Source: Antedon mediterranea (taxonomy: Eukaryota; Echinodermata; Crinoidea; Comatulida; Antedonidae). Taken from it: a DNA stretch of 64,000 nt. A program made the position numbers and the translations under genes. The DNA is taken from the NCBI RefSeq assembly GCF_964355755.1, contig NC_092675.1, positions 27,258,412-27,322,411 on the forward strand, given 5' to 3'. Position 1 is the first letter of the stretch. Every line of letters begins with the position of its first letter. This document shows, one piece after another, positions 34,383 to 61,530 of the stretch. The notes under the pieces are model-generated. The model saw nothing but the letters and a program-made list of their open reading frames with translations, did no database searches and had not been told where the DNA came from.

Positions 34383-34901
34383 CTACGAGCTAGATAAATG
34401 TGTATCTGCCGTCTGACAACTAGTCCCGCTTCCAGATACGTAGTTCCCAGAAGAAAGTGTGCTTCTGTTGATTAAATAACTCTCGGAGTCGCACTCTGAG
34501 TAAGGAACAGAACTGTCTGCAAATGGGTCAACTGAGGTCAATGGTTCTTCAGAAATCATAGCATCGTTTTGTACTTCAGTCAGTAAATTTCCATTACAGA
34601 GTTGAAGGTAACGAACATCTGCATCTTCCTTGGATGAGCTGTTCTCATCATCGTTTACGTCATCGGTGAAAACATTATTATTCTGTTGTTCCTGTTTCCG
34701 ACCCAAGATTAGGTATGTTTTGTTTGTTACTTCCACCGAAGTCTTTCGCTGATTACCTCCGGTTTCAAAAGTTTTCTCTGGCAACATACACGTAGACTCT
34801 GACAGATCTTCCTTCTCTTTTGGAGGATTTCTATTCATCTTGACTTCATCGAAGATCTCTACATCAGGTTGTTTTGCTTCCCTGCATTGCGATGCAGCCC
34901 A
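34383..34901 (-). CDS. receptor exon 11: cytoplasmic tail
   Basis: Acceptor ttttttag, then W-A-A-S-Q-C and 172 residues to TAG. The acidic, Ser/Thr-rich tail carries tyrosines in Y-L-I-L and Y-L-Q-L settings, which resemble STAT5-type docking motifs. Y-S-E-C, Y-L-I-N and Y-V-S-G lie near the end. No kinase domain is present, as expected for a JAK-coupled receptor. Confidence 0.85.
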   Translation of the reverse strand, partial: WAASQCREAKQPDVEIFDEVKMNRNPPKEKEDLSESTCMLPEKTFETGGNQRKTSVEVTNKTYLILGRKQEQQNNNVFTDDVNDDENSSSKEDADVRYLQLCNGNLLTEVQNDAMISEEPLTSVDPFADSSVPYSECDSESYLINRSTLSSGNYVSGSGTSCQTADTHLSSS

Positions 34902-37900
34902 CTAAAAAATGTTTACAAAAAAAAAGGATTGTTCAAATTAAATCAATTTTATTCATGATAAATATAGCTGGTAGGATTTTATTAATCATATTTATTACTA
35001 ATCATAATTAATCATTGCTTATGTGAGGTAATCTTTTTTTGAATAAACCATAAATGAAACTAGATACTGGGGTTTGAATTACTAACTAGCTTTCATGTTC
35101 CCATCTATTCATATGGGTACTAATGAAGTCCTATCTGGTGATTATATAATGGACCCAGACTTCAGTTTACATAAGATTTGAATATTTAATAATAGTATTA
35201 TTAATTGATTTGTTTTTGGCGGTGCTGTTCTATTGTTAGTCAACTGAAACTATTGTTATTTGAATGGTTGGATAACCATTACACCAAATTTGCATACAGA
35301 CAGTTGTAGTGAAATTAGCCTAATCACACACAGCATTACACACAAAAAATATATATATATATTTTTTTTTATGTAGGAGAATTTACAGTAGGTGGAGGTA
35401 TGCATTCTTGGAGTGCTGTTGTAGTTTCTTCTGTAATTTCTCCTACAATGACTTATATCGTAGGATTTTATTTTTACCTCCATGGTTTTACAGTATTTCA
35501 TACTGGAAATCAACAAACACCAGTATTATTATCAAATTGAACACTGTGAGTATCATCCATGTGTCTTTCAACATTAACTAATCTTGATACTAATTTTACT
35601 AGAGAGCTGGGTGCTATACAAAATAACTAACATTCATAATAATTGGCTTGTACCTTGAAGAACTTTGGCTCTGGTAATGGCTTCATACAATCTGCCTTCT
35701 TCATACAGCATATTATAATTATAAAAATTATGAGTAACGTAACAAATACTATTGACACTATTATAATCACTGCTATATACTCCTTGCCTGAAATAAAACA
35801 ACCAGAAAATGTATATAAATGCCATACATTCTAAACATACATTTTAATAATTTATCAATCAATACATTTTCTCTGTATTTTTTTTGTTGGTGGGGGGAGT
35901 GGATTTTTCTACTGTATTGAAGAACTTTCTTATAAGTAGTGGGGGGTGTGTCACTGTACTTTCTAAACATTTCCGGAGGGGCCACAACATGAGATTGAAC
36001 TATCTAACTATTAAGATTAAGATAAATCCTTCTGGAAATAACACATTTTAAATTTATGTACACATAACCAAAAATGGTTTTTAAGTATGATTCTGAGTTT
36101 GAGGCTCAGTTTATTTTTTATGTACAAGTGTCTTTTAATTAATAACTTACACTTACACTATACTACTGGATTCATACAGACCCAAATGAATGCTGTTATG
36201 AAATTCTAAAAATACAGTAGTAGTGTTTCACTGTACCCACCTACTTTTTAAACATTTCTGGAGGTCCCACAACATATCTAACTATTAAACAAAAAAATTA
36301 GGCTTTTTTAGAAGAAAAGCAAAATGTTCTATTTTATCATAATAAGATAAATCCTTCTGGAAATAACACATTTTAAATTTATGTACAAACCAAAAATGGT
36401 TTTTAAGTATGATTCTGAGTTTGAGGCTCAGTTTATTTTTTATGTACAAGTGTCTTTTAATAATACCTTACACCTGCTTACTAAATTTGTACTATTTGTT
36501 TTTGAAGTGTGAATAGAATATCTCTATGGAATAATTAAATAAAAAAAATAATCTTCTAGATTCATACAGACCCAAATGAATGCTGTTCTGAAATTCTAAA
36601 AACAGTCTTACCTATGCCACTTGCAGTAGGTATCCCAATGAAGCGGATTTTCGTTACCGCGATTTTAACACGTTCGTGAAATTTCAAAAAGTGACGTGTC
36701 TTTGAAGTTAAAAATATACTATTTCTTATATACACATGTGAAAAAAAATTATATGTCTGGAAAGATCTTGTTTAAGGGATTATTTTCATATATTTTTAAT
36801 CTATGTTTATTAAATATTTTAATAGAAAACGCGAGTTAAAAATGAGGTACAAAAGCCGGCGAGCCGAAATCCGCGCGCTAAAAATAACTTTGGAAAACAC
36901 CTACCCATTTTCAAAACACGATCGCACGAGGTCCATAATAGGTGGTGGAGTAATTTTTGTTGCATGTTATCAGGCTTTAAATACTCTTTATTTTGATATG
37001 TAAATCGGTTATTATTATTATGTACATCCGCCTCAAATGTCAATTTTAACGATAAAAATTGAATTTTTTAGTCTTTCTCATTATCAAAATTTGGCTAATT
37101 TAGTATTGAATTGAAGCTAATTTATATTTTTGTTTGATAAACCACATCGTTTTATTTGACTTTGCGTGGACCTCGTGCGAAGAGGCCAACAAGACCAACC
37201 ACTGAAAAAAATAATCCCTACCAAAAATATCAGTGTTTACCATTTTCCTTACGGGGGGGATTCAGTTCTCCGCTTATTACTAAATTACCGTCGCCCAGAC
37301 AATGTGCATGGTATGCATGTATTAGCGCGTTAATTAATGATTGGATAACCCCTGCAGTGGACTGTTCCATTTTCTGAACTAGTCTTCGCCGCACACGAGG
37401 CATGTCGAAAAATGTCGCCTCTCATGGAATATTTGCTTCGAAACGTCAATTTTACCGATTTATTAAATTATTTAATAAGTGGAATATTTATAAATCTACT
37501 ATATAAAGCAAGTACGTTAGGAAGAAATGTACCGAAGAAATTTAAGAAGCTTTGATTTTGCTATGCAGCGGCCGTAAGCCATTCTATGTAGGCGGCCGAA
37601 ACGCGCTTTGGCCTGTGTTGCCGTTGTATGTCTACGCTGTTTCTAGGCCTAAATTTTATTCCGTATATTTCAATTCAAAGTGCAACTTTCGGTTAGAATA
37701 ATCGAAAGGGAAATAAAATTAAACATGTTACAATTATACCATTGAGGTAATTACTTTGTTAAATAAAAAATTTCTTCCCGATATTTCTTAGTCTTAGGCA
37801 GAATTTAGCGCCAGGCTTTTATTTAGACCTTAGTCTTAGGGGCCTATATAACTTAACTTGTAGTAGGCGCGGCCGAGTCTACGTTCGGCCCGGCGCTCCA

Positions 37901-40900
37901 AATGGAATCGAACACATAATAAGCACGGGCTTAATTCTTATTTTTGGCGGTTCGAAAATCAATTAAAATAATATATGATTATAAATATAACTTTAAATAC
38001 TAGAATTAAAAAAAAAATGTATACTTACGAAAAATAATATTTAATGAAAAGAAACAATACCCACACAGTTTTTTAACGCATTATTTTTTTTTTTCACATT
38101 TTAACATTTTTTAACAATATTTTATGTTGTATTTCAGAATTACCTACCTGTCAATATAAATAACCTTACTAAAATACATATTAAATTTTATGCAATGCAA
38201 AAAAAAAGAAGTTAATTCACACATTGGTTCAAAAGTTATGAATCATTTAAAGACAGGAACTTTTTGGGCATTTTTGAGACATTGGGAAAATCACGCGTAA
38301 AAAGCCCTCGGACGAATTTTGGAGGGCGATATCTAAAAAAAAAAATGTCGAGGACACCCAAAAAAAAAAATTCTTGTACAACTCTGTTGTATCTATGGGT
38401 TTGGAAAAAATAAGAACTTTAAAATTATTAGTATAAAAGTTATAACCCTTCAAAAATGGGTTCAAATATAATTAGAAAAAGTGCCGTTTTTCAAGCAAAA
38501 ATCACTGTTTTTTGGGCACTTTAATGGACCATAACTTTTGAATGGATAATCCGATTTCAATCATTTAAATTGCAAAAGTTTATGTTCAGTAAGTTCCTTC
38601 TGATTAACTGAAAGAAAAAGTACCATCATTAATTTGAATTTTTACATTGGGATACCTACTTGCAGTTAATTGACCAGCAACAAAACTGGAGCTAATCGTG
38701 GTATAACCAACTGAATTGTGTGCTGTGATGTTTACAATGTAGTCCTTATCTGATGGCAGATCTACAATATGAATCAAATTGTTTTATGGTATACATAATC
38801 AATTAGTTTGTTTCACATAAATCATCTCCGAAAAAAAACCCCCACCAAAATAAGATCTGTCTACACTATCAAACTAGTTTGACAAAAAACAAGGTGTTAC
38901 GTTCCCAAATATGGTAGTGATATGCTTAAATATGGTAGTGATGTTATGTCCATATATGGCCACATCACATTTGTTTGTCACATAATGTTTGATAGTGTAG
39001 ACAGAGCCTAAGAATCTGTCTCTATAAGATGAGATTTCTGTTCAACCGACCTGTTCACTCCACATTCGGTTAAATGTGCGTACATTTTGTATTTTTTTCT
39101 AATTTTATACGGTCATATCATAATTGTATAATTGTAATGGAGGGGTGGATCTAGGATTTTGATAAAGAGGGGGACGATATGGGAAACTAATTGTCTAGGG
39201 TGTCCGAGACATGCTTCCCCTGAAATGTTTTTTTTTCTAGACGCCCGGAGACAGCATCTGAGGCGTTTTGGCCAGTCGATTTTTGTCATATAATTATCTG
39301 AATATAGTGTGTTTTATAGACCATATTTAATATACGGAACTGTTTAATTTTTTTTTTTTGCATCAATAGCCTAAAGCCTGTTTCCCCGTTGACGAAACGT
39401 TACGACTAGTTGCATTATAATTTTAAAATTATTAAACTTGAAAATAAATAACGATAACGATGATCGAACCGGACCGCGAATATTTTCACATTTTTACGCA
39501 ATCGTTAATGGTGGTTGCTGAGACGCATGGACGTGAAGTTTTACAAAGCAAAGGCCGGTCATGCGCAGCCGGGCCTGCTGAAAAATTGAAAAAGTTACGG
39601 GTTTTGATGCTTCGATTCAATCCGGCCTATGACATGTTTTTGCTGATATCTTAATCTAGGCTTTACACTAAAGACAAATATTAAATTAAATTGTTTTTAT
39701 ATTATAATATATCCCCCTCCCTTTTGTAATATATAAATCCGCCCCTGTATTGTAACTGTTAAGCTTATTTTAACTTGAAATGGAAGGCAATGTCGTTCAA
39801 TTTACTTTTCAACAATTTTCCATTACTCAACACAATAGTGCCATTTTTCAAGTAGCTTTAGGAGTAAAAGGTATCGGTTCATACAGTATTTACCTGTAAA
39901 TTCAACTTGAAGTGATGTGTTGTATTTTGTAGTAGCTATATCCACTTCTCTATCATCGGAAAAAACTGTTATTTTGTATCTAAGAAGATGACCATTTTGT
40001 TTTTCTGGAGGTAGTTCCTAAGAAACAAATTAGTTTTCTTTTTAATTATACTGTAACAACAGGAATGATGCTTTTTTTTTTAAAGAAAATGAAGATTTAT
40101 TTCTAAAGACATTTGCATTTGTCAAAATCTTAATGAAATGTTAAATTATGTCACCATTGCATGTTATAAATATTTAAAACCATGCTATAAAAGTGTGGTG
40201 TGAGGAGTATTGGAGGATCCCAATAATTTGTTCTGGTTAGGTAGCTTTTAGTGGGTTTCATCATGGAGAATTCTCCATGGTTTTATGAATCAGTTTCCTA
40301 AAGCTTAAAAAAAAAACCAATCTTATTATACTGATTGATCGATCGATGTTTGGTGTATTATTTCATTTATCTGCTATTGTTAATAGCCTTTAGATAACCA
40401 TCATAAGTTTGGATACTACAAACATGATGAAATAATTATGTATTTTTGTAACTTATACAGGATTTGTTGCAATTCAAAAGAATTTTATTACAATAATTTT
40501 TCATTTTGGTCATTCATTATCTGCCAAGTAAAAACTATAGATAGCATTATTCATTTTTTTATAAAAAAAAGAATCATATCAGCAGTTTTGAGGTAAAAAG
40601 TAAATACGTAAATTCACTTTCATATACTCATGTTTGGTGTGCGCAGAAGTGTACTCTATGGTCCTCGATGTCTGCGAATATACCCGTTTATTACTCTCAA
40701 TTCCTAACCCGCTCTACTTTTTTCACTTTTTCCGTCTGATGATATCTTTACAAATATAAATATGCAATGAAGTAAAAACAAATCCTAAAAGTTTCTGGAA
40801 ATATGTAAGAGAGAAAACCAAATCAACTCAATCTATTGGATTGGTGAAGGATGGAAAGGGTAATATGGCTGATGACAATCAGCATAAAGCGGAAATTTTC

Positions 40901-43900
40901 AACGCATTTTTCACGAGTGTATTCACGAATGAAGACCTCAAGTCATTGCCAGAAGTTACACCAAGTGTTGACGTGGATGACCATTTGGAGTCAATTGAAG
41001 TGACAAAGGAGGAAGTGCTTACATGCCTTCAGCAGATGAACTCAAATAAATCAGCTGGACCAGATGACGTGCATCCAAGAGTACTGAAGGAACTTAAAGA
41101 AATTGTTGCAACTCCATTGACGTCAATTTACAACAAATCACTATCGACTGGACAGTTACCGGAGTGCTGGAAATGTGCAAATGTAGTACCAATTTTTAAG
41201 AAAGGGGACAAGACTGAGGTTGGAATTTACAGGCCAGTAAGTTTGACATCTGTCGTATGCAGACTTTTGGAATCAATTGTGAGAGACAAAATTATACAGT
41301 TTCTAAATGATAGAAACCTTATTATAAAAGCACAGCATGGGTTTCGGAAAGGTAGATCTTGCGTCACACAATTGCTGGAGGTGATGGAAGAATGGACGAA
41401 ATTGCTGGATGCGGGGGAAAACTTTGATGCTGTATAATTGGATTTTAGTAAGGCATTCGATTCTATCCCCCACCAGAGATTAATAACAAAATTGGAAGCG
41501 TACGGAATAAAAGGAAACCTACTGAGATGGATACATCAATTTTTGACAGGGAGGAGACAAAGAGTTAGAGTGGCCGCAGCATTTTCTGAATGGTCTACGG
41601 TTAAAAGCGGAGTCCCTCAAGGCAGCGTGTTAGGCCCTTTATTATTTATAATTTTCATAAACGACCTACCTGATGCAGTTAAATCTAAAGTATGGATGTT
41701 TGCAGATGACACTAAGATGTTTAATGTTGTGTATGATAACAGAAATGATACTGTTCAAAATGATCTCAAGGCATTATCCGATTGGTCTAAAAGATGGCAG
41801 CTGAAATTCAACATCAATAAATGTAAAGTAATACATTATGGAAATTCAAATCCACAAATGCAATTCACTATGCCAACAGAGGAAGGTGACGAGGATCTGC
41901 CAAATGCCAATACTGAAAAGGACCTTGGAGTTACTTTTGATCAGTCTTTAAAATTTTCACTACATACGAATGAAGCTGTAAATAAAGCAAATAGACTCAT
42001 TGGATTGGTAAGGCGATCTTTTGCTTACATGGATAAGGATATGTTCCTGCCCCTTTATAAAAGTATAATTCGACCTCATCTGGAATACGCAAGCTGTATA
42101 TGGTACCCTCTCCTAAAAGGTGATTTGGATAAGCTTGAAAGAGTGCAGCGTAGGGCCACTAAAATTGTCAAAAAGTTAAGAGATAAATCTTACGATCAGA
42201 GATTAAAAGAGCTTGGATTACCTACACTGAATTACAGAAGAAGGAGAGCGGACATTATACAAGTGTTTAAAATTATCAAGGGCTTGGATGATATTGAAGC
42301 CGAAACCTTTTTCGACTTTAGAGAGGACAGTAGAACAAGGGGTCATCAATACAAATTAAGAAAGCCAAGAGCCCGACTGAAAATCAGAAGCCACTCCTTT
42401 TCATGTAGAATCGTCAACACATGGAACAATCTATACCACACTACAGTACAAGCAGAAAACATAAATGCATTCAAGGATCAACTAAACAAAGACAGAGCAA
42501 TGGGAGATAAATTTTGCTACCAATTCTAGATAAATACAGAAGAAATGGAGGGCGTTTAAAAGGCATTTGCCTTAATCAAGAGCCCGAAGATTCAAGTAAG
42601 ATTCAAGTAAGATATATTTTGTATTCATTTTTTTATAAAAAAAATAATCATATCAGCAGTTTTGAGGTAAAAAGTAAATACATAAATTCACTTTCATATA
42701 CTCATGTTTGGTGTGCGCAGAAGTGTACTCTATGATCCTCGATGTCTGCGAATATACCCGTTTATTACTCCCAATTCCTAACCCACTCTACTTTTTTCCT
42801 CACTTTTTCCGTCTGATGATATCTTTACAAATATATTTTGTGGTATTCATTTTCGTACCTTCCAATTGCACGTAAGTACATCATATCCATCTTTCCAATT
42901 GCAGTTACCATCCACTGTACCTTCCGGTGGTTCTGTTGAAAAATGTTTAGTTCAAACTCAATTAAAGGAACTTAAAATTGTTGATGATTTCATGGAAATA
43001 GTAAAAACCTTAATCAACTAGGGACCAGTTGCTTTTTGTACTTTTCTGTGGTTTTATCCTTGATTATCCACTTGATCAACAGAATGAATAAGTAAATAAA
43101 AAAGAAACTTAATATATCTTGACTTTTAGCTTTTTGTCAAAACATGAAAAAGTATTGCATCCCTGGTTTTAATATACAAACAAATACTAGAGGCCTACGG
43201 CAAAAATAAACTGTAGCTCAATTGAAGATAGAAGCAATGGTTTGCGATTATATGGTCAAACTTTAATATAAAATCAACAACATTCCAACCAAGACTATTT
43301 CATTTTTGATGCAAAAATGTATTCAAATTTACTTGTTTCTTCTTTCATGACAACAACAATGTCCGACCATTTATTAATGTTGTCTTCTCTTGAATATCTG
43401 ACGGCAACTTGTACCTCATACTCCTTGTAGCCTGTAGGTATGTCAAGAATTTTCTCAGACAAATCGTCATGTGATCTATCACAATGGATCTTAAAAACAA
43501 TACAAAAATATCAAAGTTTAGTGTGAGCAGAAAAAAGGAAACAATAGTGTCTATGAAAGTGGGAACTATCGCCCAACAAATAATTTATTTAAATTTTAAT
43601 TTATTTAATACACTTCGCTTCCAGTCCATCGCCTCTCGTACAAATAGATTTCGTAATAGTTTTTACCCATCTGCCATTAGAATACTGAATCTTACAGAAT
43701 GATGTGTCATGGCATTTTGTTCTGTATTATATTGTGCTGTAGTTTCAGAGATACACACTTTTCTGTGTATTTTAGGCGAATGATATAATTGAATTGAATT
43801 AAATGTACATAACGTACATTTTTTTAGGTTATTGGATGTTTAAAAACATACCTCGTTCTTCTCTGGAGGTTTCATGTTTGGATACACCTCCTTATAACTA

Positions 43901-46900
43901 ACAACGTAAACATGCTCTATTCTATATTTTGTTGGATCCCAATTTACTTTAAGTAACGTGTCATTTTCAATCCGTCCCACAACATTCTTTGGAGGATACA
44001 TTATGACTAATAAAAGAAAAACAAGAAATTAGTGGCAGTGGTTTCAACATAATATATTACAATAAGAAAATGGCAATTCATTCATTTATCTAGTATGATT
44101 TTTCTGCTATATTGATTTTATATAATTGCCCATTCACTGCACAGTGTTATTTCCAATTTTGTGCAGAAATAGTGATTTTGAAATTAATTGTTTTACTTAC
44201 TAAAACAGTTTTTCAAAATTGTGTTTATATTGTACTGTAGGTGGGGGTTGGTCTAGGGGGAAACAAACAAAATTATGAAAGACTTTTTTTTCCCCATGAA
44301 ATTCTTATAAAACTAGAAGGCCACTATACAATTAGTATAATTCCCCTACATGATTTCCCCGACATTTTTTAAAAAGTTTTATGTCTAGTGCTCAGTGTGA
44401 TTAGATTAAAGTGTACTACAACTTTTGAATGTGAGTTTGGTGTAATGGTTATATATCCAGCCTTACACTGTTGCGTTCCCTGGTTTATTTCCTGCTGTGA
44501 AGATCTTTTTTGTTTATCATCCTTATTATTCCTTTTTATTATTATTTTTAATAATTATAATATTTTATATTTTAATAACCTAAGGTTACCTTAAGACTGA
44601 TCACTACCAGATCACCGGCTTCTCTATCAAGGCCTATTGTAAGCCTTCTAACCTGGTAACAACAACCTTGAGCAGCTGTGCAAGCTGCACAATTTCAGAT
44701 GTACAAGTATCGTACCTCTATAGATTATTGGACTAGCATTATATAATTCAACTAAAATATCTGTACAGACTGTTTTGGCCTCAAATGACTCAGATACAGG
44801 TTTTCTATAGCCAGCATAGAACTGTTAGTAATTCTCAAAATCACACCTTTGTTACTTCCCTAGAAAATATGCAAATTAGTAGTACAAGAGGTGAAAGTTG
44901 CCATATCTCTATCGGTCATTAGCGTTTTTCGAGATACATAAGGCTGTAATTTGCATATTTCATATAACTTGTACTAATAATGTGCATACTTTCGAGTTGC
45001 TTGACTTTTTGGAATTACTAAACGATCCTATACTGGCTATATAAAACCTGTATCCAAGTCATTTGAGGCCAAAACAAAGTCTGTACATACATTTTAGTTA
45101 CATTATATGCAAATATTGAGAAATAGGTTCGAGGGTCAAATGTCATACTTTCGATAATTTTTTTTTCAATAATGACCCAGATACAGGTTTTCTATAGCCA
45201 GCATAGAACTGTTTAGTAATTCTCAAAATCACACCTCTGTTACTTCGCTTGAAAGTATGCAAATCAGTAGTACTAGAAAGTTGCCATATCTCTCTCTCTC
45301 GGTCATTAGCGTTTTCGAGATACATAAGGCAATTCACTGTAATTTGCATATTTCATATAGCTTGTACTACTAATTTGCATCCTTTCGAGGTGCTTGACTT
45401 ATACTGGCTATATAAAACCTGTATCCGAGTCATTTGAGGCTAAAACAATGTCTGTACATACATTTTAGTTGCATTATGCAAATATTGAGAAATAATAATA
45501 ATAATATCCTGGATTATAGCGCCTAATGTTGTGAAACCTCTAAGCGCTGTACATAAACTAATACGAAAAAAGGGAATTCCAACCATGCCAAAATGAAGGC
45601 GTGATTTTGGGAATTACAAAGCGGTCCTATGCTGACTATAGGAAACATGTATCCGAGTTATTTTAGTCCAAAACAAAGTTTCTACAGACATTTTAGTCGC
45701 ATTATGTATGCAAACATTGATAAATGGGGTCGAGGGTCAATTGTTGTATTTCTGGTCATTTTTTCGTAAAATGTTTCATTAGAGTAAATATAAATATGTA
45801 CATTCTGAACAAGTTATTGAAAAAATCAACTCTCTAGCCTTAGTGGTTTTCGATATATAGGAACCTTTAATTTCACCCTCTAATTTGCATATTTCATGTA
45901 ACTTGTACTAATAATTTGCATACTTTGGAGGTGAGTGATACAGGTGTGATTTTGAGATCTACTAAACAGTCCTATGTTGGCTATTAGAAACCTGTATCGG
46001 AGTCATTTGAGGGCAAAACAAAGTCTCTACAGACATTTTAGTTTCATTTATATATGCAATATTGAGAAATGGGGTCGAGGGTCAAATGTCATACTTCCGG
46101 TCAATTTTTTGTAAAATGTTTCATTGGAGCAAATAGAAATATGTACATTTTGAATACGGCTGTGAAAAAATCAGCTCTCTAGCATTAGTGGTTTTCGGGA
46201 TATAGGACAACTGTAATTTTTTCCCCTTATTTGCATATTTTATTTAAATTGTACTACTAATTTGCATACTTTCGAGGTGTGTGACAAAGGTGTGATTTTG
46301 GGAATTACAAAGTGATCCTATGCTGGTTATTAGGAACCTATGTCTGGGTCATTTGAGGGCAAAATAAAGTCTCTACAGACATTTCAGTCACATTGTATAT
46401 GCAAACATTGGGAAATGGGGTCGAAGGTCAAATGTTGTACTTCCGGTCATTTTTTCGTAAAATGTTTCATTAGAGTAAATATAAATATATACATTTTGAA
46501 TAGATCAGTGAAAATATCAACTCTCTCGGACTAGTAGTTTTTGAGATATGGTAACCCTGTAATTTACCCCTAATTTGCATATTTAAGCTAATTTGCATAT
46601 TATCGGGATGAGTGACAGAGGTGTGATGCTCAAATTTTGATCTCCTCATAATATATGACCATTTAAAAAAGAAAAATCTCTGTTTGCAATTTGTTTCACT
46701 TTGGGCTGTTTTTTTTTGCTAGATTGACTAGCCTATTGTGTTGTCTGGTTGCTGAATTGTTTTTCTTTTTTGGCAGAATCCATTAATTAAAAACGAGAAA
46801 GACACAATTTTATACAATTGTATGTTTTTCTTCATGATCAACTCTATATATCGATGTGATGATATAAGTGTGATGCATGCAATTTCAATTATTAGAGTCG

Positions 46901-49900
46901 GCTTATTTTCCACATTATTGCAATTATAGGCCCATGTTGGATTTCTATTTACAAAAAAAATGTAGGCAAGTTTGTGACCTTTAAAAGACTGAGGAAAAAA
47001 ATTAATAACTTATACTAACTTATAAATTGTGTGTATATAGAACTTACTGCTATAGAAAGCAAAATCAGCAATGTCGCGGTCTCCTAAAGCATTTGAGACA
47101 TACAACTCTACTTTCATTCTGCCATGGTCATAAGCTAAATCTATATATTTATTATGTGTCGTTTTATTATTTCTACAAAAAAAAAAGAGAAAAACATCAT
47201 AATACATTTAGTCAATATTTATGAACAGTATATATGTGTACAGTATATATATACAGTATATATAAATACCACAGGAACTGCAGAATATTAATTCTAAACT
47301 GCCTGGTAATAAATAAATTAATTAATTTGAAATGATAAATAAATCTGTGAGAATGAGATGTAGATGCCCTAACCATTGAACTTTCAAACTATCAAATGTG
47401 GCACATCTTCATTTTTTTTTCACATCAAATTTGATAGTGTAGACAAAGCTTTACATTCTGTCTTTGACAAGGCAAATCCATGATTACATGCTGTAAGCAA
47501 ACTCTCCATAAACTTACAATAAAGTAGATGAGGCCCTTCCATAGAAAATTTGGTACACATTTGGAAGGTTTGTATCCAAGTCTCCAGGTAGCCATGTGCA
47601 TCTGAAATGTGTAATACTCGTCTCAAAGCATGTAAGATTTTTGACCGCTACCGGTTTACCTGTTGAAGGATATCAAATTTATTGTAATTGATAACTTTAC
47701 TGTACCATGTAGTAGTAATTGAGAAATCAATTAAGTACACAAAAAAGCTGACACAAGAATAAGTGGTGGTGCTAGACCACACCGAGATACAATGGTGAGG
47801 TATGATAAACAATCAAGACGTCACTCATGTGAATAAGGCCACCGATGCTAGTAGCTGTAAATATGTACGATTATTGACCGCTCCCTGTTTACCTGTTGAA
47901 GGATATTAAATTTACTATAATTGATAAACAAATTTAATACACACAAAGAAACATTTTGTTAGAAAATGATATTACAACATTATATATATATATATTTTTT
48001 TTTTTAACCATATTTAATGAGGGTGATCCATCCAGCTATTGCTGCAGTCATTAGGGACCCTTCACAAGACAAACATATACACAAGCTGCTCTACATAACA
48101 AAGTCTTATTACAAGTCTTTGGAAGTGGAGAATTTGGTTGGTCCTTAGAAAAAATCCTGACATGTGACGGGACTTGAACACAGGACCCTTGGAGTGGTAG
48201 CCAAGCATCATAACCACCAAGCCACAACTCCACCCAAAAAAAATTTGATAGGATATTCTGGGACCTGTTCACTAGATCGTTGACTGATGCTGCAGTCCTA
48301 GAATAAAGCCCATTCTGTTTTCTTAGAAAAGTTCATATTTATTTTGACTAATTGTAACATTTTATTTCTAGTTTTAAGGTTTAACTAAATTGAGTAATCA
48401 GAATATACCTACGTCCAAAAGTGATGAAGACCTCTTGGCTGTCATTAGAAACTTGACAAGAATATTTACCACTTTGATCAAAAGATGACATATTAATTCC
48501 CAAAATCGATTCATTAGATTCTAAAATGGTCTCAATAAAATACCATGTTATTGTATATCCTGTCATATCCAAGTTGCAGCGTAACTCTAATACATCACCC
48601 TCAATAAGTTCAAAAGTTTTTGGTTGGCTAGGCAATGTCACTGTAAAAGAAAAATTTGTTCAAAATTTCATTTTGAAAAAATTCATTCATTCTGTTATAG
48701 GTGTACTGGATTCAAAAGTGAAGGTGAAAGAAATGTCATAATCTACATTAAATGAAATGCTATTCATTAAGCATTATACGGTATATTTTGGAATATACCG
48801 TATAATAGCCACAAACGATGGGAATATTTATATATACGGTATATTCTTTATGAGACCCGTTTCTGCTGCCAAAAAATATACCGTATATAAAATATACCGT
48901 ATATATACGGTATATTTTTGGCAGCAGAAACGGGGCCATGTATGGATCTCTCAAAAAAGAACTTATTCCCTAATTTTCAAATCAAATTATAGCAAATAAA
49001 GTATATTCTAATCATTCATTTTAGGAACAATTACATTTTTATAATAATATGTCCGTCCATTTTTTCAACTTCCTTTTATAACCACAGGCTTTGTATATAA
49101 TTGTTTTGTATAATTTATATAGATTTATATATAATTTATATAGATTTTTATTAATTCATTTTTAAAATGTTATCTAAGCATACTACATATATATACTACG
49201 TTCTCAAAATAATGTGTGAAACAGAGACTACTGTACATCTTATCCTTCTTTTTTTAATTTAAAAAATAAATAATCAAATAAAATCAAATGATCATTGCTA
49301 ATAATTGATCAGAAAACTACAAGTATGTGTGAGAATTTCACTGTATGCACGTACTGTACGAAAGTACAATTTACAACATTTCTATTGTTTTTTTAAAATT
49401 TAGCATCGAAAATCTTAAAATTGATTTAAGTGCATGTGATATTAACAACATGATGCAACACCTTGTGCAATGTACTCAAAATGAAATTCTATGCGTTGAT
49501 TGGATGCTGAAAAATATAAATTTGGAAATCATTGTGAAACAACAAAAGAACAAGGGTGTGCTAACCAATGCTTACCGGTATTGTATCAGGAAACATTAAA
49601 AAAAAACACACAAAAACAAAGGAAGAAAATACAGATTTAAAAACAAAGTAAAAAAACAAGGTAGCCTGAAAACATGCAAGTCTGTGTCTGCAGTAAGGTC
49701 TGTCAGCCTGACATTAGGAGAACGAGCCCTATTTAGCGTGAGCTTTTGCCTCTGGCATCTTACTTGTTTATTTTTGCCTAAAGCCAGTCATTAATGTCTT
49801 AGGCAATTAATAAATCACGTAACACCTTGTTCATCTTCCAGGCTCAGCCTTCCTTGCTTCTGATTGGCTGCAATGCACAGCCTATTTTGGAATTGGTCAC

Positions 49901-59508: not shown

Positions 59509-59516
59509 ATGTTAAT
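59509..59516. repeat. 8-bp target site duplication, left copy
   Basis: ATGTTAAT, identical to 61531-61538. Confidence 0.85.
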
Positions 59517-61530
59517 AGGTATCCCAATGAAAGCGCACAGAGGGGTATCACTTTTGAAATATTGACGAAATTCGAAAAAGTAGTATGACTTTGATGTTAA
59601 ATAAATCGTATTCAATCTTAATTAATACTTACAAAATTTATATTGTTTGAAAGTACTTGTTTTAATCTATGTATAAGTGTGTTTATAATTAAAATTAATG
59701 AATTAGTTGCCGAGAAAATGCGATTTTAAAACGGTTCTAAAATCCCGTCGAGCCGATTTCCGCGCGTTGAAAACCTCATCGGAAAATCCCCATCAGTTTT
59801 CAAAACACGATCGCACGATTACCATTGGAGCTAGCGGATTAATTTTTGTTGTATGTTATCAGGCTTTAAATAAGCTTTAATTTGATACGAAAATCGTCTT
59901 CTATAAATAGGTTTTTCGTAACGAAAAGTCAATTTTTGTGACAAAAATCCAATTTTGATTCACCGTTTATGGAAAAATATTATGGATTTTGGTATTAAAT
60001 TATAGCTAAATCTACATTGAAATCGATAAAACATAGTTTACAAACGTATTGTGCATGGTAATTGTGCGAACTACATTTTAAAATGGTGCATGAGGCGTAA
60101 ATCCCGTTCAAAATTTTAAAGATCCAACCATTATAATCCGGTGAATATTGTAGTGAGTAAAATATTGTACTCTAAAGTACGCGCGTGTTTGTTGTGGCGT
60201 TTTCCGTTAAATACATTAATGCACCCTATCAGCGAATGGTACGTTCCATATTTTGAACACGTTGTTTAGTTTTCCTCGCTCGAGTTCGACCGGTTCGACG
60301 CGAGATGTGTGACAGCAGCGATGTCGGAGATTGACATGTCCTTTTCCGTCGTAGAATATCTGGTTTTACACATTAATTTAACAACTTAAAATTGATGTAA
60401 TGTGCGGAAGATTTATTATGCAAGTATATAATGCAAATGCGTTAGGTTAAAATGTACCGAGGAAATTTATTAAGCTAATTTACCAACGTTACATTTGACT
60501 CTGTATACGGCGGCCGAAAGTCATTAACTGCGACCGAAATACTTTAACGGGAGCGACTACTGATCGCGAGTAAGCCGTGACTTGGCCTAAACTTTAGCTC
60601 CGTATTTCAATTTAATAACGTAATAATACGAAAAGAAAACAATTTTTATAATGTTATATATACTATTCAGGTAAACAATTAATTGTTTTAATTAACATTG
60701 ATTATCTTAAATGAGTTTATTTTGACCCATATTGTGCGTTTGCCTTAAAAGAGCATATCTTACTTAGCAGCCCGGCTTAGATTTGGTGTCATAATCATAT
60801 GGGCCTAAAATCTTGTTTTACGTATTCAAAAGTTATATATAATAGTATTTATGATTGAAATTATAAATATAAAGTATATTAAAATATTCTAATAATTATA
60901 CTTACCGAAAATTAGTGTAAAATAAAGGAAACAGTACACACCGTTTTTAACATACTTTTTCATTTTTTTTTTTATAATTTTAAATTTCACCATTAAAAAA
61001 AATTTTTTTTTTCATATACACATCTAAAATATATTTATTAATGAAATATACACTACATTCTAACAAGTACAAAAAAAATTAAATGAATTAGTACAGTAGT
61101 TCAAAAGTTACAGATCATTGAAAAATTGCAGTTTTTTCATTTTTTAGGGAATTCCAGCAAAAATGGGCGTTAAATGCTTTCCTACCACTTTGCGGACCAA
61201 TAATTTAAAAAATAGGTTTCGTTGAGGCTCCAAAAAAAATAGAGTTGTACAACTCTGTGATATCTATAGGTTTAACAAAATTCAAAACTTTTAACTAATT
61301 ATTGTAAAAGTTATAACCTTTTAAAAATGCTTCCAATTTCAACTGCAAAAAACACCATTTTTAGGCAAAAAATCGTATATTTTTTTACCACTTTAAATAA
61401 CCATAACTTTAGAACGGGTAATCGGATTTCAATCATTTAAATTGCAAAATGCTAATTACATTAAGTTCTTTATGGTTAACTGAAAGAAAATGTAAAAAAA
61501 TTAATCTGATTTTTTTCATTGGGATACCTA
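59517..61530. mobile_element. 2.01 kb AGGTATCCCAATG inverted-repeat element, copy 2
   Basis: Same ends (AGGTATCCCAATGAAAGCG and TTCATTGGGATACCTA) and same orientation as 36628-38658, roughly 70 percent alike by eye. Flanked by ATGTTAAT on both sides. It confirms the boundaries and the 8-bp duplication. Confidence 0.88.

What the first reader, a model, noticed from the sequence alone, without database searches (positions are those of the whole stretch)
36612..38761. Transposon inside a coding exon of a cytokine receptor, in a configuration that could be spliced as a new intron
The element 36628-38658 interrupts the last extracellular exon, with CTTGCAGT duplicated. On the minus strand the exon reads ...ACTGCAAG, then the element starts TAGGTATCC. 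Splicing from the AG|GTATCC at the element end to the AG inside the second target copy (CTGCAAG|TGGCATAG) removes the element. The join adds exactly three bases, one Ser codon, and keeps phase into the transmembrane exon. A donor from the element and an acceptor from the target duplication is the logic proposed for introners. The downstream acceptor has a weak pyrimidine tract, so this remains a hypothesis.
Basis: partly seen in the sequence, partly recalled or inferred. Interest (0 to 1): 0.88.

Follow-up and report, generated by a model that had tools for sequence, protein, structure and literature searches.

The report
Fresh transposon in a receptor exon
A recently active transposon has landed in one exon of one of four near-identical receptor genes; it is probably not a new intron, though the joint it makes with the exon could let the cell splice it away with the neighbouring intron at the cost of three amino acids.

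Summary
The insertion is real: a 2,032-bp element (36627-38658) with 14-bp inverted ends and a 7-bp (not 8-bp) target duplication, CTTGCAG. It belongs to a young family of about 160 copies; two others are 99.85-99.95% identical to it. Three paralogues carry the same exon uninterrupted, so this is a recent insertion into a duplicated gene. The other exons that I located in the window copy are open. The proposed new intron (donor TAG|GTATCC, acceptor in the target copy) works on paper but is weak: both sites score below every inferred site of the gene, it leaves an 8-nt exon, and an overlapping stronger donor (CAA|GTAGGT) would put that join out of frame. The arrangement is expected for this family: the donor lies in the element ends and the target preference (NTNNNAN) gives a terminal AG in 100 of 240 orientations. 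Of 120 copies screened, 2 were recognised in host exons, so introner behaviour is not supported. A likelier in-frame outcome is CAA|GTAGGT joined to the normal transmembrane-exon acceptor: the element merges with the existing intron and the protein loses Gly-Ile-Gly. Exon skipping, cryptic exons or loss of function remain open; there is no RNA evidence.

The parts
36627..38658 (.). non-autonomous TIR DNA transposon, 2,032 bp, subfamily I
   Evidence: Inverted ends; at least 37 full-length relatives by BLAST (capped list); absent from three paralogues.
36627..36640 (+). terminal inverted repeat TAGGTATCCCAATG
36620..36626 (.). target site duplication CTTGCAG, second copy in gene direction; ends in the AG proposed as acceptor
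38659..38665 (.). target site duplication CTTGCAG, first copy in gene direction; its last base makes the junction donor
38659..38761 (-). 5' part (103 nt) of the interrupted FN3 exon
   Evidence: Frame and splice sites shared with three paralogues; fn3 match PF00041 E=8e-7 for the last two ectodomain exons together.
36612..36619 (-). 3' part (8 nt, TGGCATAG) of the interrupted exon, then donor GTAAGA
   Evidence: Contiguous with the 5' part in all three paralogues.
38654..38660 (-). junction donor A|GTAGGT: last exon base 38660, G from the target copy, TAGGT from the element; predicted join 38660^35787, in frame, loses Gly-Ile-Gly
   Evidence: Score 3.07; 2.8% of 915 GTs on the gene strand as high; 5 of 8 inferred donors lower; same 8-mer as the Ig-exon donor.
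35654..35787 (-). transmembrane exon GKEYIAVIIIVSIVFVTLLIIFIIIICCMKKADCMKPLPEPKFFK; best acceptor among 135 AGs from the element to here
34383..34901 (-). cytoplasmic tail exon with stop
39894..40017 (-). preceding FN3 exon; joining it to the transmembrane exon (skipping) is also in frame
43333..44006 (-). two exons (44006-43852, 43489-43333) of the second receptor module, with WSxWS-like NKWSD
   Evidence: domain naming by eye.
47048..47659 (-). two exons (47659-47518, 47172-47048) of the first receptor module
   Evidence: domain naming by eye.
48413..48640 (-). Ig-like exon; its inferred donor is GAC|GTAGGTAT
   Evidence: Ig_3 match E=1.3e-5, below Pfam cut-off.

Best explanation
Shown: a non-autonomous cut-and-paste-type DNA transposon of a recently active family inserted, with a 7-bp target duplication, into the last FN3 exon of one of four close paralogues of a type I cytokine-receptor-like gene. 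Inferred: it is a young, perhaps polymorphic, partly disruptive insertion rather than an intron of its own. Where the transcript is still spliced productively, the likeliest in-frame route uses the donor CAA|GTAGGT, made by the last G of the target copy and the TAGGT of the element end, joined to the normal acceptor of the transmembrane exon (38660^35787). The element, the 8-nt exon remnant and the old intron leave as one larger intron; the exon shrinks from 111 to 102 nt and the receptor loses only Gly-Ile-Gly before the membrane. My odds for this RNA route being the main spliced product are about 0.4; the insertion part is near certain.
For: Empty site in three paralogues. Two copies elsewhere 99.95% and 99.85% identical. 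Other located exons open with GT/AG borders. In-frame product of the join computed. Junction donor scores 3.07, above 5 of 8 inferred donors, and is in the top 2.8% of 915 GTs; it makes a 102-nt exon. The same GTAGGTAT is the inferred Ig-exon donor in all four paralogues. The transmembrane acceptor ranks first of 135 AGs from the element onward. The second exonic copy (L076) also has a junction donor in frame with its exon's own donor, minus 21 nt.
Against: No RNA data. Weights are recalled and human-like, and rate several inferred acceptors poorly. The old donor TAG|GTAAGA remains and scores higher (4.7). Inside the element lie a stronger donor CAG|GTAGGT at 38147 (7.2) and an acceptor at 38607 (4.1), so cryptic exons are possible. 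Over the family the junction donor is mostly mediocre: of 50 orientations (of 120) that form it, 11 score 1.3 or more; in L076 it scores only -0.12 against 7.3 for the original donor. Redundancy alone explains why the insertion is tolerated.
Confidence: 0.6

Rival explanations
1. Loss or truncation: the element's stops, cryptic splice sites or poly(A) signals end the message before the membrane exon, giving no protein or a soluble ectodomain with 16 or so foreign residues.
For: Read-through ends ...QLTASRYPNVKIQINDGTFSFS*; 6 AATAAA and 5 ATTAAA on the gene strand of the element; strong internal donor at 38147. An intact full-length paralogue C exists, so loss may be cheap.
Against: All located exons of this copy are otherwise open, which youth also explains. 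About 3 AATAAA are expected by composition (my estimate), so the signals are weak evidence.
Confidence: 0.27
2. Exon skipping: the 111-nt exon is left out, joining 39894 to 35787; the frame is kept and 37 residues, part of the last FN3 domain, are lost.
For: Exon is 111 nt with equal phases; the skip product is in frame. Skipping is a common outcome when an exon is grossly lengthened (established knowledge, not tested).
Against: The junction donor restores a normal-sized exon (102 nt) and scores well. The product would break an FN3 domain.
Confidence: 0.09
3. One reading: TAG|GTATCC to CTGCAAG|TGGCATAG, adding Ser, introner style.
For: In frame, no stop. Published introners include one that carries its donor and takes its acceptor from the target site (PMC9860276 Fig. 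2C legend, passage seen). The only other exonic copy found also has AG at the duplication's end and a non-stop phase.
Against: Weak donor and acceptor, 8-nt exon, stronger overlapping donor that gives a stop with this acceptor; family found in host exons only twice in 120 copies screened.
Confidence: 0.03
4. Assembly artefact or haplotig rather than a real locus.
For: Paralogues are 95-98% identical over long stretches, a range that heterozygosity might reach.
Against: The four copies lie apart in the assembly (C6 27.30, 27.35, 27.43 Mb; C4 27.16 Mb) and differ by other insertions and deletions; the insertion has a clean 7-bp duplication.
Confidence: 0.01

Closest known systems
Introners (Gozashti et al. 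2022, PMC9860276; passages and abstract seen)
   Same: TIRs, target duplication, donor carried by the element, possible acceptor from the target copy, codon insertion as reported for some families.
   Different: 2,032 bp against median lengths of 30-654 nt; not found repeatedly as introns in host genes; splice sites weak; no RNA.
Maize Ds/Ds1 elements spliced from exons (Giroux 1994, Dennis 1988, Wessler 1991; titles seen in reference lists; content recalled)
   Same: A non-autonomous DNA transposon in a coding exon whose terminus supplies a donor.
   Different: Here the better-scoring route joins the pre-existing intron; Ds has 8-bp duplications (seen for the Ac/Ds family only as a partly cut passage; 8 bp recalled).
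hAT, P and Dada DNA transposons
   Same: TAGG-type ends recall Ac; T...A target symmetry recalls hAT (both recalled). 7-bp duplications are mentioned for P-type Galileo and for Dada (papers listed only).
   Different: No transposase found in the copies read; hAT and P domain hits are not linked to these ends, so the superfamily is open.

Membership tests
Introner | many family members present as introns of host genes | tested here: not met
   2 of 120 screened copies recognised in host exons; screen by open frames, eye and Pfam/PDB on a subset, so short exons can be missed.
Introner | removed by splicing | not testable with these tools
   No RNA data.
Introner | splice sites from element and/or target duplication | tested here: inconclusive
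   GT and AG present in the right places but weak.
Introner | length in the described range (median 30-654 nt) | tested here: not met
   2,032 bp; range from passage.
Non-autonomous TIR DNA transposon | terminal inverted repeats | tested here: met
   14 bp perfect.
Non-autonomous TIR DNA transposon | target duplication of constant length | tested here: met
   7 bp in 60 of 65; T at position 2 in 58 of 60, A at position 6 in 59 of 60.
Non-autonomous TIR DNA transposon | dispersed similar copies without transposase | tested here: met
   373 exact ends, 157 right ends; no ORF over 82 aa in the element.
hAT superfamily | hAT transposase in an autonomous relative | tested here: inconclusive
   59 PF05699 hits listed, none seen by eye to lie inside a listed family copy.
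P superfamily | P-type transposase in an autonomous relative | tested here: inconclusive
   35 PF21787 hits; the one inside a family copy (L140) is a separate 5.6-kb P-like element nested in it.
Type I cytokine receptor | cytokine-receptor module, WSxWS, single TM, box 1 | tested here: inconclusive
   fn3 over cut-off, Ig below cut-off, EpoR_lig-bind E=0.043 below cut-off; PDB interleukin receptors only at E 0.65-0.68; NKWSD, TM and PLPEP by eye.

The most novel reading that the evidence does not exclude
The family's target preference (NTNNNAN, often CTNNNAG) and its TAGGTATCC ends together build a splice donor, (A)G|TAGGT, at the upstream joint in either orientation, so that insertions in exons tend to be absorbed into the next intron ('donor capture') and survive when in phase. 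In both exonic copies found, the target copy ends in G in gene direction and the junction donor is in frame with the exon's own donor; by chance this has a probability of about (50/120 x 1/3)^2 = 0.02, calculated after the fact from two cases.
Probability: 0.12. Interest if true: 0.6.

Novelty: new member of a known kind. Interest (0 to 1): 0.28.

Why it matters
A transposon whose ends and target choice together form splice signals is a natural test of how insertions in coding exons are tolerated. The locus has what such a test needs: three empty paralogues, one intact full-length relative, and three distinct predicted junctions that a handful of RNA reads would tell apart. As it stands it is a well-documented recent insertion, not evidence for intron gain.

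Tried and rejected
8-bp duplication: rejected, 7 bp fits 60 of 65. Autonomous partner: five copies with wider end spacing were fetched (L033-L037) and hold no transposase-like ORF that I recognised; hAT and P domain searches gave no linked partner; L140 looked promising but is a P-like element nested in a family copy. Species: two paper searches by size and chromosome lengths found nothing. Selection after insertion: not measurable; dN exceeds dS between paralogues with few synonymous changes. Phage search with the locus: no match. Searches failed because the translations held stop codons; single exons were used instead. LINE labels for L010, L094, L102, L104 and a P-like label for L086 are mine by eye; Pfam gave no match for the L010 peptide and the others were not scanned.

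Full report
What is there. The minus strand of the window holds a receptor gene: an Ig-like exon, two cytokine-receptor-like modules, FN3 exons, one transmembrane exon and a cytoplasmic tail. Pfam supports fn3 above cut-off; Ig and cytokine-receptor matches stay below cut-off and PDB interleukin receptors appear only at E 0.65-0.68, so 'cytokine receptor' is likely but not proven. The first exons and one FN3 half-exon between 43333 and 40017 were not settled. Exon borders are inferred from frame and paralogues, not from transcripts.

The insertion. The element occupies 36627-38658, with 14-bp perfect inverted ends and CTTGCAG on both sides. In 65 whole copies from the genome, 60 have a perfect 7-bp duplication with these boundaries; T is at position 2 in 58 of 60 and A at position 6 in 59 of 60. 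The 14-base end occurs 373 times exactly (control 0). Right-end patterns with up to 2 mismatches gave 157 hits each; the two sets overlap because the patterns differ by two bases. Two subfamilies share the ends: the window's (40 fetched copies including it at 96.5% or more) and another about 70% similar over 700 bp. Two copies are 99.95% and 99.85% identical to the window's, so it is young.

Empty sites. A protein search found three other copies of the exon, on C6 at 27.35 and 27.43 Mb and on C4 at 27.16 Mb, all uninterrupted. Fetched DNA shows all three contiguous exactly across the site. Paralogue C is full-length with open exons; B and D lack about 1 kb from the end of the transmembrane exon into the tail exon. 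In the window copy the nine exons examined are open with GT/AG borders, counting the interrupted one read across the empty site.

The arithmetic is right: +3 nt, Ser, frame kept. Against it: TAG|GTATCC scores -1.4 and the target-copy AG -6.1, each below all inferred sites of the gene (8 donors, 9 acceptors, recalled human-like weights). The acceptor would leave an 8-nt exon. The overlapping donor CAA|GTAGGT scores 3.1, the only GT of 2 or more in the exon and the first 400 nt of the element, and with that acceptor gives a stop at once. The pattern is also not special: the donor belongs to the element end in either orientation, and AG closes the target copy in 49 of 120 orientations (duplications verified) plus 51 of 120 (one side only). 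With two of three phases free of the TAG stop, about 28% of exon insertions would look like this.

Is the family an introner? I screened 120 copies: 60 with both flanks and 60 with one 240-bp flank (the 36 with the longest frames were printed and read). Pfam was run on 10 and 8 peptides. Two lie in recognisable host exons: the window and L076, in an exon resembling the myosin X N-terminal SH3 domain (E 2.4e-5, just under the cut-off). That exon has 15 further uninterrupted copies on C3. L073 lies in an intron just upstream of a WDR33 exon; L064 is beside a CENP-B_N domain. Both exonic insertions thus sit in duplicated genes, where redundancy explains survival.

A better route. Joining CAA|GTAGGT to the normal transmembrane-exon acceptor keeps the frame and removes only Gly-Ile-Gly. 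That donor is in the top 2.8% of 915 GTs and beats 5 of 8 inferred donors; the same GTAGGTAT is the inferred donor of the Ig exon. The acceptor ranks first of 135 AGs from the element onward. Against this: the old donor (4.7) persists, the element holds a stronger internal donor (7.2, at 38147) and an acceptor (4.1, at 38607), and elsewhere the junction donor is mediocre: 11 of the 50 formed in 120 orientations score 1.3 or more, and L076's scores -0.12 against 7.3 for its original donor. In L076 the junction donor is again in frame (21 nt lost). The chance of G-ending plus in-frame in both cases is about 0.02, computed after the fact.

Literature. From PMC9860276 I saw the abstract and passages: introners carrying their donor and taking the acceptor from the target site are described, median lengths 30-654 nt. 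From PMC3443670 and PMC3260210 I saw passages and reference titles on transposon-derived introns and maize Ds. Papers were seen as listings only. I did not search for this species' transcripts; none were available.

Verdict. A real, young transposon insertion in a duplicated receptor gene; the intronisation hypothesis as stated is unlikely; a donor-capture route is the testable alternative.

Noticed in passing
window 59516-61530: A second copy of the same transposon family (ends TAGGTATCC/GGATACCTA, 7-bp duplication ATGTTAA), of the other subfamily by its start sequence.
   Followed up: partly
L076, L078 (C3:22094546-22099851): Myosin X-like exon whose 3' part plus donor is repeated as a 79-bp tandem array (14 units matched downstream); 15 further exon copies, many with array units beside them, lie on C3 19.6-25.1 Mb.
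   Followed up: partly
L027-L032 against window 34631-35690: Receptor paralogues B (C6) and D (C4) lack about 1 kb covering the end of the transmembrane exon and the start of the tail, including the box 1-like stretch; B and D differ by one nonsynonymous change in the ectodomain exons compared although on different chromosomes.
   Followed up: partly
window 38659-48640, minus strand: Ectodomain exons of the paralogues show dN above dS (for example A-C 24.8 nonsynonymous and 2.2 synonymous changes), as in fast-diverging receptors; numbers are small.
   Followed up: partly
L140 (C3:37947200-37954400): A 5.6-kb P-like transposon with a 794-aa open frame, 99% identical to copies on C1 and C8, nested in a copy of the window's element.
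   Followed up: partly
window 36003-36602: Duplicated stretch of about 325-390 bp spacing in the intron just downstream of the interrupted exon (families D1-D3).
   Followed up: no
window 40760-42529: Non-LTR reverse-transcriptase-like ORFs (225 and 363 aa) in an intron; the surrounding stretch is missing from the three paralogues (label by eye).
   Followed up: no
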